Shown here: piece after piece, positions 1 to 3,703 of the stretch
Numbering within the stretch: the stretch's first letter is position 1
Layout: each line of letters starts with the position of its first letter
Source: an uncultured Pelagibacteraceae bacterium
Lineage (GTDB): Bacteria; Pseudomonadota; Alphaproteobacteria; Pelagibacterales; Pelagibacteraceae
DNA length: 64,000 bases
Direction of reading: 5' to 3'
Assembly (NCBI GenBank): GCA_902536085.1
Contig: CACAWF010000001.1
Coordinates: 1-64,000, forward strand
The notes under the pieces: generated by a model
Told to the model about the DNA's origin: nothing
The model's database searches: none
Seen by the model: only the letters and a program-made list of their open reading frames with translations
Program-made: the position numbers and the translations under genes

Positions 1-1128
1 CTTTATATAAGTTAGCAGCTTCGGTCATCAATTTAACCCAACCATCTGAGTTTAAAGTTTTAAAAGGCAGGTTAACGTATTGTTTATTAGTTGAAATACT
101 CTTGACTTTTTAGCTTCACTAGGAATATGCCTCATGCAATCAATAAATCTTCCTTGTCTATAAAAAAGCAGACCATTATGCTCTCTTAAGATTTTTTGTC
201 TTATAGAACTGTTTCTACCTACAGGTGGGTTTTGACCATCTTTTGATCCAAATCTAGGTGGAAACCTGGACATTCTTACTTCTGCATTAATAGTTTTCTC
301 TTCACCCTCTGATGAAACTTTAAAGGGCCATTGCCAAGTTTCATATTCAATTGCCTTTGTGTTATTTGGCCCACAACTTTCAACGTGTTCACATGAACTA
401 TCTATAAATAAAGGATCTATTGGTTTAACTTGATTTCCTAAAACGTTTATTATTAAACCATTCTTAAGATTCCTCCAGTAAGACATAGAAACTCTCCAAC
501 CTAAATTATTTCTAATTGCTTCATCAGTTTTCCATGTCATTCGATCACACTTGTTCCAAACGACTATTGTCCCCGTTTTATCTTCAGAAAAATTTTCATC
601 TAGGCACTCTTGAACAAAATCTGGAAGACTATTTGCTTCTTTTTCTAAAGGGAGTTGAGTGGTATTTAACTTTATAAGTTCATCAATATCTACTGTTATA
701 GTTCTCCATTTATTATCCTCCTCATTCTTTGTAAAGACTGAGAACGATCTTGTTTGACTAATTGAAGATTTAGGTAATCCATGACCAAATCTTCCATAAC
801 CTTTTCTTTTGAGAGGCGTATTAGCTGATGGTCTATGTGTTCCTCCAATTTTACACGCTGTATGTAAAAAATCTTTAGGCATACCTGTCCCATTATCAAT
901 TACTGCTAAAGACTCTGGTTGATTTGTTCCTTCCTTGTTTTTTGCAGCTATAAAAATCTTAGAAGCATTAGCTTCATAAGCATTATCAATTATTTCATAT
1001 AAAGCGTTTCCAGTGTTTTTATAACCAGAGTTTCGTTCACTTTCATAAAAATTAGCTGGATCTATAAATGATCTATCGTTTTTATTTTTTTCTGCAATTA
1101 CTGTTTGTGCTTTTAGTTCTGGGTGCAT
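1..1128 (-). CDS. MORC/Hsp90-like GHKL ATPase; ORF 52..1128 appears frameshifted near 107..111 and may continue off the left edge
   Basis: GHKL motifs: ALYEIIDNAYEANA (N box), VIDNGTGMP (G1), KGYGRFGHGLPKSSI (G2). A second open frame reads VKSISTNKQYVNLPFKTLNSDGWVKLMTEAANLYK to the window edge. Confidence 0.7.
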
Positions 1129-1142
1129 TTTTTCTCCTATAG

Positions 1143-1643
1143 TTATGCTGCTACAAAGTAGCTTTGTTTATCGTTATTGGGTTTAGTTAATAAAATTACG
1201 TTATTACTATTAGGAGCAGAGGATTTCTCCTCTGCTGCTATTAATAGTTTTTCTGGATTAAACGCTTCTTCGCATAATGTATGCGCATATCGCGTCATAG
1301 CCTCAAGCTGTCTTTTACAACTTCTAAAATAATTAGAAATTTTAGTTCTAAAAACTTTAAAGATAAAAGTTGCAAAACCAGTTATCTTCGATAACCCGCT
1401 TGCTTCTGGCTTATATTGTATGTTTGAAGTTAAATATTTGCTGTAAGTTTCACTCTTAAGCAAATACTCAGTTACTGAAGAAAAGATATCTTCAGCGTCT
1501 TCTACACCAACGCCTCTTTTGACCATATGGCCAATCCAACCATTTCGGTAATTTTTATAAAAATCACCAATTAGTGATTGGTACTCATTTACTGACGCTA
1601 ATCTTGAATTTTGACAAGATGCATCGATACGTTCTCGTGACAT
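1143..1643 (-). CDS. Sigma-70/ECF region-2-like protein without an evident region 4
   Basis: Pattern ...GVEDAEDIFSSVTEYLLK...ITGFATFIFKVFRTKISNYFRSCKRQ resembles sigma region 2 (EDAEDL.Q..F...F..WLF.I.RN...D..R); AAAGGAGG ribosome binding site upstream. Confidence 0.5.
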   Translation of the reverse strand: MSRERIDASCQNSRLASVNEYQSLIGDFYKNYRNGWIGHMVKRGVGVEDAEDIFSSVTEYLLKSETYSKYLTSNIQYKPEASGLSKITGFATFIFKVFRTKISNYFRSCKRQLEAMTRYAHTLCEEAFNPEKLLIAAEEKSSAPNSNNVILLTKPNNDKQSYFVAA

Positions 1644-1729
1644 ATTTCCTCCTTTTGTTCACGACATCAGAGGAACTTCACAAGTGTATCAATTACATCT
1701 TTTAGGAACATCGGTGGCTCCTGTTGTGC

Positions 1730-1748
1730 AAAGATCACTCTGATCTTT
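1730..1748 (-). other. Perfect 8-bp stem-loop in the 5' leader of the sigma-like gene
   Basis: AAAGATCA-CTC-TGATCTTT, just downstream of element A. Confidence 0.55.
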
Positions 1749-1754
1749 ATTTCT

Positions 1755-1773
1755 TATATATATATACTCCGGC
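1755..1773 (-). promoter_or_regulatory. Promoter/operator element A: CCGGAGTATATATATATAA, preceded by TTGACT
   Basis: Reverse strand TTGACTTTTTTTGCCGGAGTATATATATATAA; the GGAGTATA core is shared with elements at 2316..2325 and 2343..2357. Confidence 0.5.
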
Positions 1774-1805
1774 AAAAAAAGTCAATGATTTAGCCAATTA
1801 TTTAG

Positions 1806-2309
1806 CTATTTTTTATGATGATTTACTGAAAACCAATAACAAAATGCGTTTACAAATTTACCTTTCGAGTCAGTAATAACGTTTAAAAAACAAAGCATAC
1901 AATCTTTCGTTGAATTTTTTTTATACCTCAAAACTTGTTTAAGAATCCTCTTATTAAATGGATCAGGCTTACTCCACACACATTTGAGCTCAACGATTAA
2001 ACCGTTTTTTTTCAGTTTATCTTTTGAAAATTCAAAATCATACCTATTAGTAGCTTTTTTGTTTTTGTGAGTCCTTTGGTAATTTACAATTTGGCCTAGG
2101 GTTGAAAGTTCAAAATAACCTCTTTTAATAAGAGACTCTATTTGAAAAAAATAACTTTTTCTTTTGTGATTGTTTAATTTTTTAAATAAATACTTAAAAG
2201 AATATTTCGCATCTATAATAGCTTCTTTTAAACTTAAATTTCCATTCAAAGCATTAAATATGCCGTTTTGAACTACATTTCCTATTTGTGCGTGTAATAA
2301 CTTATTCAT
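1806..2309 (-). CDS. Hypothetical protein, possible PD-(D/E)XK nuclease-like fold
   Basis: ORF of 167 aa; RYDFEFSKDKLKKNGLIVELKCVW resembles a D...ExK core. No firm family recognised. Confidence 0.45.
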   Translation of the reverse strand: MNKLLHAQIGNVVQNGIFNALNGNLSLKEAIIDAKYSFKYLFKKLNNHKRKSYFFQIESLIKRGYFELSTLGQIVNYQRTHKNKKATNRYDFEFSKDKLKKNGLIVELKCVWSKPDPFNKRILKQVLRYKKNSTKDCMLCFLNVITDSKGKFVNAFCYWFSVNHHKK

Positions 2310-2310
2310 A

Positions 2311-2357
2311 TTATATTATACTCCAGAAAATATCTTTTATATCCGGAGTATATATAT
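2311..2357. promoter_or_regulatory. Divergent promoter/operator pair B and C
   Basis: Inverted TATACTCC (2317..2324) and GGAGTATA (2345..2352). Reverse strand reads CTGGAGTATAATATAATATG into ORF 2309..1806; forward reads CCGGAGTATATATATG into the structured RNA. Confidence 0.5.
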
Positions 2358-2358
2358 G

Positions 2359-2483
2359 TGAGCTAGTTAAAGTTCTTTTACTTAGGTGAAGAGAAACAGC
2401 GATGTCTCTTGAGGTATTATAGATTATTTAGCTTCCATACCTGTTGTCCACCTAATCTCCTTTCTTAAATTTTAGCTAGCTCA
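2359..2483 (+). ncRNA. Candidate structured RNA/leader with four nested or branched helices
   Basis: P1 TGAGCTAGTTAAA(2359..2371)/TTTAGCTAGCTCA(2471..2483), 13 bp with one U.G; P2 TTAGGTG(2382..2388)/CACCTAA(2449..2455); P3 AAGAGA(2389..2394)/TCTCTT(2405..2410); P4 AGGTAT(2412..2417)/ATACCT(2437..2442). Confidence 0.6.
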
Positions 2484-2506
2484 ATATAAATTATGAAAGA
2501 TGTAAT

Positions 2507-2755
2507 ATGAAAAAAATAAAAATCACAAACAAAATACTAAAACAGCATGTGCAAAAATTAGCCGAAGACGGCGAGATAAATCGTTTAAATTTATTGTTAA
2601 GAGACTGGATCATAAAAGGCGTAGTATTGGGTTTGATTACAAAAAAATTTGAAATTGATAACTTTAAAAATAAAGCAATAGACAATTTCATAATAAAATC
2701 TTTTAAGGAGGTAGGAGTGGACATGATAAATATTGAAGGAGAAACTTTACATTAA
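2507..2755 (+). CDS. Hypothetical 82-aa protein
   Basis: First ORF of a coupled cluster; TAATG overlap with the next ORF. Confidence 0.55.
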   Translation: MKKIKITNKILKQHVQKLAEDGEINRLNLLLRDWIIKGVVLGLITKKFEIDNFKNKAIDNFIIKSFKEVGVDMINIEGETLH

Positions 2756-3045
2756 TGGATAGAGATTTTGATAAAGCATTACAAATTAGACTAGAAGATA
2801 GAATGGATAGTTTGAATTATTATTCCTGGTATTTTAATCATCTTAAAATTAATAATGAAGTTGAGAAACAAATTTCGAAAGAAAAACCGTTTATGTCTTT
2901 TTTTATGAAGTTCATGAACTTACCTATGAATATCTATAGATTTTTTAAGCATAATATAATGCTATTTGAATTTTATATGTGTGCCAAAGAGGTGGAGTAT
3001 TTAAAAATGAAATTAGGACTTATAAAAAAAAGAATAGAGAAATGA
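2755..3045 (+). CDS. Hypothetical 96-aa protein
   Basis: Start overlaps previous stop; ATGA overlap with next ORF at 3042. Confidence 0.55.
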   Translation: MDRDFDKALQIRLEDRMDSLNYYSWYFNHLKINNEVEKQISKEKPFMSFFMKFMNLPMNIYRFFKHNIMLFEFYMCAKEVEYLKMKLGLIKKRIEK

Positions 3046-3245
3046 ATTGGATTAAAAAAGAAATAAAAAAAAATCTTCCAAAAGCAAAAGATTTAAAAAA
3101 TATTTCTAAAGTTATGCTTGCTCATAATATCGATATTTTAAAAGACGAGCTGAGAGAAATAATTGCAGAAAGAGATTTTATTTATGAAGAAAATAAAAAA
3201 TTAACTAAAAAAAATTTAGAATTGTTAAAAAGATGTTCTCTTTAA
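3042..3245 (+). CDS. Hypothetical 67-aa probable coiled-coil protein
   Basis: MNWIKKEIKKNLPKAKDLKN...; the ATG at 3042 is more likely than the listed start 2979 because of ATGA coupling. Confidence 0.5.
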   Translation: MNWIKKEIKKNLPKAKDLKNISKVMLAHNIDILKDELREIIAERDFIYEENKKLTKKNLELLKRCSL

Positions 3246-3331
3246 TTTGGCAGCTTATTACAAGTTTAATTTTAACGATTATACTAGGATTTGGAATATT
3301 TAGTTTAATAAAGTTTTTTATAGGAATTTAG
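3233..3331 (+). CDS. Single-TM microprotein, 32 aa
   Basis: MFSLIWQLITSLILTIILGFGIFSLIKFFIGI, overlapping the end of the preceding ORF; not in the supplied track. Confidence 0.4.
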   Translation: MFSLIWQLITSLILTIILGFGIFSLIKFFIGI

Positions 3332-3343
3332 TTATGAATTTAT

Positions 3344-3428
3344 GCTCAAATGGCGAAATAGTCAGACGCGACAAGTTTAACTTGTTTCACTACGGTGAGT
3401 ATCAGTGCAAATCTGATTTTGAGCACCA
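3344..3428 (+). tRNA. Divergent class II (Leu-like) tRNA with encoded CCA; 7-nt anticodon loop reads UUA, otherwise a degenerate tRNA-Leu(UAA)
   Basis: Acceptor GCTCAAA/TTTGAGC; TGGCG..GACGC D-arm like tRNA-Leu; GACAA-GTTTAAC-TTGTT; variable arm TCAC-TACG-GTGA; T-arm ATCAG-TGCAAAT-CTGAT; A73-CCA. Confidence 0.65.
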
Positions 3429-3447
3429 TAAGATGACTATATCTTGC

Positions 3448-3470
3448 GGGGAAGGATAGATCCCTTCCCT
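3448..3470 (+). other. Strong stem-loop downstream of the tRNA-like gene
   Basis: GGGGAAGG-ATAGATC-CCTTCCCT, 8 pairs including one G.U, no U-tract. Confidence 0.5.
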
Positions 3471-3484
3471 GTAAAAAATGAATT

Positions 3485-3703
3485 ATGAAAAAAAAGACTA
3501 AAGAAAATAATATTATAGATTTTTCCGAAAAGTTTATGGAAAAAAGAGTTCGTCAAGAAAGAAAAAGCTACTCTAATAAAATTGTAGGGGAGTGTTATGA
3601 GTGCTTAGGTGAAGGTATAGTTTTAGTGGATGACGAAATTATGGAGTGCATAAGTTGTGAAGGAGTAGGTACAATTTATTATGGAAAAGAAAATATTAAT
3701 TGA
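3485..3703 (+). CDS. Small DnaJ-type zinc-ribbon protein
   Basis: CYECLGEG...CISCEGVG: paired CxxCxGxG motifs. Confidence 0.6.
   Translation: MKKKTKENNIIDFSEKFMEKRVRQERKSYSNKIVGECYECLGEGIVLVDDEIMECISCEGVGTIYYGKENIN

What the first reader, a model, noticed from the sequence alone, without database searches (positions are those of the whole stretch)
2359..2483. Undescribed-looking multi-helix RNA directly downstream of a promoter element
A 13-bp closing helix (one U.G) encloses a 7-bp helix, which encloses two 6-bp hairpins, giving a clean branched fold in about 125 nt. The U.G pair is only valid on the + strand, matching the + strand promoter at 2343..2357. It sits 24 nt before the first tiny ORF, so it may be a leader/riboswitch or a processed RNA. 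I do not recognise it as a known class.
Basis: partly seen in the sequence, partly recalled or inferred. Interest (0 to 1): 0.82.

Follow-up and report, generated by a model that had tools for sequence, protein, structure and literature searches.

The report
Structured RNA of a DruA-type module
In a few relatives of the ocean bacterium SAR11, a folded RNA of about 125 letters, matching no catalogued RNA family, sits beside a four-gene cluster that looks like an anti-virus defence system, and appears to be switched on by the same dedicated start signal as those genes, so it is probably a working part of that system.

Summary
In detail: 2359-2483 (+) folds as described (-33.2 kcal/mol, z about -3), and it is a real RNA. 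Homologues occur in five other SAR11-type genomes, with 11 base pairs showing compensatory changes. A covariance model built without the window's lineage finds the window copy (E = 6e-13). No Rfam family matches. The RNA is not tied to the downstream tiny ORFs, which are unrelated between lineages. It belongs to an adjacent divergent module: PD-(D/E)XK-like protein, sigma-70/ECF-like protein, GHKL ATPase, DruA (PADLOC DruA, E = 1e-121). RNA, nuclease-like gene and sigma operon each start with the same promoter motif, exactly three per module. The motif's sequence follows the sigma type, not the RNA body. I read this as a new noncoding RNA of a putative DruA-GHKL defence module, made under the module's own sigma-like factor and probably acting in trans. 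A cis-acting leader role is not excluded: an ORF always starts 9-23 nt after the RNA and there is no terminator. Neither transcription nor function was tested. Two more diverged modules have positional-counterpart RNAs. Module, promoter regulon and associated RNA together look new; the RNA's biochemical role is open.

The parts
2343..2357 (+). Module promoter motif CCGGAGTATATATAT driving the RNA (RNA 5' end expected about 2358-2361)
   Evidence: One of exactly three copies per module, one per transcription unit, in six genomes; 4 matches with up to 1 mismatch in the window against 0.98 expected. Start site inferred.
2358..2483 (+). Conserved structured RNA (P1-P4), the finding
   Evidence: Six homologues, 41 modelled pairs, 90.3% of cells paired, 11 pairs with changes on both sides; leave-out model E = 6e-13; single copy, only in genomes with the module
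2359..2374 (+). P1 5' strand, pairs with 2468-2483
2382..2388 (+). P2 5' strand, pairs with 2449-2455; 4 of 8 model pairs with compensatory changes
2389..2410 (+). P3 hairpin; loop GCGA here, GUGA or GCAA in relatives (GNRA). Its ACAGC can alternatively pair with GUUGU of J4/2
2412..2442 (+). P4 hairpin with a variable, mostly pyrimidine-rich loop
2468..2483 (+). P1 3' strand
1806..2309 (-). PD-(D/E)XK-like protein (167 aa), divergent from the RNA, first gene of the module
   Evidence: RxDFEF...VELK pattern conserved; weak DpnII-MboI hit in the L068 homologue, E = 0.01; own copy of the promoter motif at 2317-2326 (-). Nuclease assignment tentative.
1644..1757 (-). Structured leader of the sigma-like gene; its last hairpin sequesters the Shine-Dalgarno GGAGG
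   Evidence: Conserved in 5 genomes, two compensatory pairs in that hairpin; individual folds
1763..1772 (-). Promoter motif of the sigma-GHKL-DruA operon
1143..1643 (-). Sigma-70/ECF-like protein (166 aa)
   Evidence: TIGR02937 E = 0.003 here; positional homologues in diverged modules E = 2e-7 and 4e-6; same role annotated in Roseivivax
52..1128 (-). GHKL (HATPase_c_3) ATPase, truncated at the contig end; 601 aa in the near-identical relative
   Evidence: The module's DruA gene lies on contig C32 of the same assembly

Best explanation
2358-2483 is a noncoding structured RNA that belongs to a four-gene DruA-GHKL module. Shown by comparison: its fold is conserved with compensatory changes; it occurs only with the module; and it shares a three-copy promoter motif with the module's nuclease-like gene and its sigma operon. 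Inferred: the module's sigma-70/ECF-like protein reads that motif, so nuclease-like protein, sigma-GHKL-DruA and RNA are made together as one regulon. The RNA starts at the 5' strand of P1 and is cut out of, or ends at, the base of P1. It then acts in trans as an RNA partner or regulator of the module's proteins, most likely in phage defence. The sigma gene's own leader hides its ribosome site, so the regulon is probably off by default and opened by a trigger not yet known.
For: Six homologues, 90.3% of pair cells kept, 11 pairs changed on both sides, 0/500 shuffles as high, slid controls 29-49%. Leave-out model finds the window at E = 6e-13. Presence: a scan of 17 whole genomes hits only the 5 that carry the module core, once each; rmuC loci without the module give nothing better than E = 0.09. 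RNA identity L068 to L075-77 is 80-87% nt while the sigma-like protein is 40-44% and the nuclease-like protein 49%; the immediate downstream ORFs are unrelated. Window against G145: near-identical up to about 2490, then divergence jumps just after the RNA. Exactly three motif copies per module, CCGGAG in window/G145/L068 and CCGGGG in L075-77; L068 has a genus-g4-like RNA body but a window-like sigma and window-like motif, so the motif follows the sigma. Analogous shared promoters in diverged modules L093/L094 and, on Roseobacter plasmids, TGCACA-N16-CC[GT]ATACT at three units with an annotated sigma gene. DruA E = 1e-121 in PADLOC. No terminator, and no consensus sigma-70 promoter on the + strand at the RNA.
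Against: No transcript, no protein-RNA contact and no phage phenotype was tested. In all eight loci examined an ORF starts 9-23 nt after P1, as a leader would have it. The window's sigma-like protein has only a weak profile match and its model was poor (pLDDT 53). The defence role rests on homology of DruA and GHKL to defence proteins. The two diverged modules carry RNAs that the covariance model does not recognise.
Confidence: 0.55

Rival explanations
1. Cis-acting leader: the RNA is the 5' UTR of the small-ORF operon and controls its translation or stability, as part of the module's regulon, without a separate trans product.
For: An ORF follows within 9-23 nt in every locus, mostly with a purine-rich ribosome site, and no terminator separates them. 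The sigma gene of the same module also has a structured leader. In L094 the RNA loop CCUUUCUUU is complementary to AAAGAAAGG just upstream of the next start codon (sequence).
Against: The ORFs are unrelated between lineages while the RNA stays 58-87% identical; no conserved sequestration of their ribosome sites seen; sequence divergence jumps right after the RNA.
Confidence: 0.32
2. Antisense-type small RNA that controls translation of the sigma-like gene: its single-stranded GUUGU and UCCUUUCU segments pair with RCAAC and the AAGGAG ribosome site in the sigma leader.
For: Both RNA segments and the leader segment are conserved in most of the five loci compared; both RNAs come from the same promoter type.
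Against: In L075 the RNA changed to GUUAU while its leader stayed RCAAC, so that pairing is not compensated; the same change keeps the internal pair with the P3 loop. CU-rich to SD complementarity is common by chance.
Confidence: 0.1
3. Chance inverted repeat or DNA element (for example the end of a mobile element) and not an RNA.
For: AT-rich region; a long inverted repeat at the edge of a mobile-looking module.
Against: Compensatory changes in all four helices, G.U pairs valid on one strand only, start at a promoter motif, one copy per module and not at both ends.
Confidence: 0.03

Closest known systems
Druantia (type I), DruA
   Same: The module's last gene is a DruA/DUF4338 protein (Pfam PF14236, PADLOC DruA)
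   Different: No DruB-E among the neighbouring genes; instead a GHKL ATPase, an ECF-like sigma, a PD-(D/E)XK-like protein and an RNA
MZA system, MzaB
   Same: GHKL ATPase domain of the 601-aa protein matches MzaB over about 200 residues
   Different: Score far below the family cut-off (56 against 850 bits); no other MZA genes seen
Defence systems with a dedicated ncRNA (retrons, CRISPR-Cas, type III toxin-antitoxin)
   Same: A structured RNA encoded beside, and apparently co-regulated with, putative defence proteins
   Different: No reverse transcriptase, no CRISPR repeats, no tandem-repeat RNA; fold matches no Rfam family
ECF sigma regulons
   Same: A small sigma-70-like protein whose own operon and neighbours share a dedicated promoter
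   Different: The regulon includes a structured RNA, and the sigma leader hides its own ribosome site; no anti-sigma factor recognised

Membership tests
Any Rfam 15 RNA family | Covariance-model match at or above gathering score | tested here: not met
   No match for the RNA in the window or in L001/L068/L075 even at E up to 1
Conserved structured RNA (new family) | Compensatory changes supporting one fold in homologues | tested here: met
   11 pairs with changes on both sides, 0/500 shuffles; leave-out model
Riboswitch / cis leader | Conserved type of downstream gene | tested here: not met
   Downstream ORFs unrelated between lineages
Riboswitch / cis leader | Immediately upstream of an ORF | tested here: met
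   9-23 nt in 8 loci
Riboswitch / cis leader | Recognisable expression platform (terminator or hidden ribosome site) | tested here: inconclusive
   No terminator-like site; no conserved SD pairing seen, but only by inspection
Riboswitch / cis leader | Ligand-dependent switching | not testable with these tools
   Needs in-line probing or SHAPE
Druantia type I | DruA present | tested here: met
   PADLOC DruA E = 1e-121; Pfam DruA E = 9e-24
Druantia type I | DruB-DruE alongside | tested here: not met
   None of the neighbouring proteins scanned matches DruB-E; neighbours are the GHKL, sigma-like and nuclease-like genes, rmuC-side ORFs and two unrelated ORFs after DruA
MZA | MzaB above NCBIfam cut-off | tested here: not met
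   56.5 against 850 bits
Sigma-70/ECF factor | Sigma-70 family profile match | tested here: inconclusive
   TIGR02937 E = 0.003 for the window protein; 2e-7 and 4e-6 for positional homologues L093/L094, all below the curated cut-off
Retron | Reverse transcriptase next to the RNA | tested here: not met
   No such domain among the neighbouring proteins
Type III toxin-antitoxin RNA | Tandem-repeat antitoxin RNA | tested here: not met
   No tandem repeats at the RNA

The most novel reading that the evidence does not exclude
The RNA is an obligate ribonucleoprotein component (scaffold, guide or sensor) of a DruA-GHKL defence machine, which would make this an RNA-dependent defence system of a new type, switched on by its own sigma factor.
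Probability: 0.2. Interest if true: 0.9.

Novelty: new variant of a known kind. Interest (0 to 1): 0.72.

Why it matters
The mechanism of DruA proteins is open as far as I could find. A conserved RNA made under the same dedicated promoter as DruA, a GHKL ATPase and a nuclease-like protein gives a concrete, testable lead: does the system need an RNA? It also offers a rare case of a putative defence module that carries its own sigma-like factor with a private three-promoter regulon, in one of the most abundant groups of ocean bacteria.

Tried and rejected
Rfam at gathering and permissive thresholds: nothing. Phages by DNA, plasmids and phages by the sigma-like protein, and viral contigs by DNA pattern and protein: no homologue of the RNA or of p166; six viral pattern hits match only the 19-nt P3 segment and look like chance. 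The rncO hit (E = 0.74) lies on the other strand, away from the RNA. Weak family DNA hits G180, G198 and G289: G180 and G289 match only AT-rich sequence beyond the RNA; for G198 the region gave no model match. AlphaFold models of the sigma-like and nuclease-like proteins were poor (pLDDT 53 and 58), so no fold search was run. No solved relative of DruA. Trans pairing of the RNA with the sigma leader was considered; not supported by compensation. One script read wrong records because alignment rows shared locus names; it was repeated correctly, and one search is used only for L079, L080, L093 and L094.

Full report
Observation. The energy is -33.2 kcal/mol, z about -3; 0 of 200 and 1 of 500 dinucleotide shuffles do as well. 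Nothing in Rfam matches. The element at 2343-2357 is not a sigma-70 consensus promoter, but it recurs in two neighbouring intergenic places.

Homologues. DNA search of 397 genomes of the family found one near-identical copy (G145, 98%). A search of GTDB genomes with the neighbouring 166-aa protein found a more distant locus, L068, and a profile search of the family found three more, L075, L076 and L077. In all of them a homologue of the RNA lies at the same place: divergent from the 167-aa gene, directly after the promoter motif. L068 folds with z = -6.0, L075-77 with z about -3.4 to -3.6.

Covariation. On the six-sequence alignment, 90.3% of pair cells form standard pairs and 11 of 41 pairs have changes on both sides; no shuffle of 500 reaches either value, and structures slid by 1-3 columns keep only 29-49%. 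Compensatory pairs occur in all four helices. P4 and the base of P3 are shifted by one column in the window lineage, so these counts are conservative there. A model built only from L068 and L075-77 finds the window RNA at 59.7 bits, E = 6e-13, and nothing else significant in 109 kb apart from the near-identical G145 copy. The P3 loop is GCGA, GUGA or GCAA, all GNRA. An alternative pairing of AYAGC in P3 with GUUGU in J4/2 is kept in all six sequences; a switch or pseudoknot is possible, and the GNRA pattern alone does not decide between the two.

What it belongs to. In each locus the divergent genes are, in order, a PD-(D/E)XK-like protein, a sigma-70/ECF-like protein, a GHKL ATPase of about 600 aa and a 657-658 aa DruA. 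In the window assembly the GHKL gene is broken at the contig end and the DruA gene continues on contig C32. The module lies next to rmuC-side genes. The RNA model hits only genomes with this module core: 5 of 17 whole genomes scanned with permissive filters, once each, and no rmuC locus without the module. The RNA stays 80-87% identical between L068 and L075-77 although the sigma-like proteins are 40-44% and the nuclease-like proteins 49% identical, and the ORF just downstream is a different protein in each lineage. Between window and G145 the near-identical block ends just after the RNA, at about 2490-2500. So the RNA goes with the module and not with the following ORFs.

Promoters. Each module has exactly three copies of the motif, one before the nuclease-like gene, one before the sigma-GHKL-DruA operon and one before the RNA. 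The motif reads CCGGAG/CTGGAG in window, G145 and L068, and CCGGGG in L075-77. L068 is informative: its RNA body resembles L075-77 but its sigma-like protein and its motif resemble the window. The motif therefore tracks the sigma-like protein. Two more diverged modules (L093, L094; DruA 37-38%) have the same gene order, sigma-70 profile matches of 2e-7 and 4e-6, their own shared promoter words, ACCCCATA and TACATA, and a long-stemmed RNA-like element at the same place (z -2.5 and -6.6) that the model does not recognise. On two Roseobacter plasmids GHKL and DruA stand next to a sigma-70 family gene, annotated as such in Roseivivax, and TGCACA-N16-CC[GT]ATACT occurs three times in each locus, before three units. 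That a module-encoded sigma factor drives its own small regulon is inferred from these patterns; it was not assayed.

Sigma leader. The leader of the sigma-like gene is itself structured in five genomes; its last hairpin covers the Shine-Dalgarno sequence and carries two compensatory pairs, and the diverged L093/L094 leaders show the same arrangement in their folds. Translation of the sigma-like protein is therefore probably held off until a trigger opens the hairpin (inference).

Mechanism. Best supported: a co-regulated noncoding RNA of a putative DruA-GHKL defence module. That it acts in trans is inferred from its conservation independent of the downstream ORFs. A leader role is the main rival, because an ORF always starts 9-23 nt downstream and no terminator is seen. 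Pairing with the sigma leader is less likely, because the one informative change is not compensated there but is compatible with the internal pair. One published analysis takes DUF4338 (the DruA Pfam domain) to be a GNAT-like acetyltransferase domain (PMC10853773); what DruA does in this module is unknown.

Novelty. No paper found in the library describes an RNA with DruA or DUF4338; the search for structured RNAs in Cand. P. ubique (PMC2704228) does not mention rmuC. The library lacks most subscription papers and preprints, so absence there is weak evidence.

Noticed in passing
window 3344-3475 (+); also L024:4368, L057:1611(-), L058:1517(-), L068:6789(-), L075:9571, L076:6250(-), L077:5969(-): A tRNA-like RNA with class II shape and encoded CCA, 90% mean column identity over eight loci, but with a changing anticodon loop (read by ARAGORN as UUA, UUU, AAA or UAG), followed by a conserved hairpin. 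Rfam's tRNA model does not accept it. T-arm and 3' hairpin appear to covary. Also present in two rmuC loci without the DruA module.
   Followed up: partly
window 1644-1757 (-): Structured leader of the sigma-like gene whose last hairpin sequesters the ribosome site; same arrangement in seven modules.
   Followed up: partly
L079 and L080 (Roseivivax, Leisingera plasmids): GHKL-DruA pairs next to a sigma-70-like gene with a private promoter TGCACA-N16-CC[GT]ATACT at exactly three units per locus.
   Followed up: partly
region upstream of rmuC (window 1-3700; L056, L057, L058): The rmuC-side region looks like a hotspot for restriction or defence genes: related genomes carry a Vsr-like ORF or a DNA cytosine methyltransferase-like ORF there instead (read from the DNA, not profile-tested).
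   Followed up: no
window 1-100: The contig start does not continue colinearly: 1-99 and 91 onward match the relative L024 about 62 nt apart, so the GHKL frame breaks; likely an assembly-end artefact. The module's DruA end is on contig C32.
   Followed up: partly
window 3485-3703 (+): 72-aa protein with DnaJ-like CxxCxG zinc motifs (weak anti-TRAP/DnaJ central domain hits), conserved beside the tRNA-like RNA.
   Followed up: no
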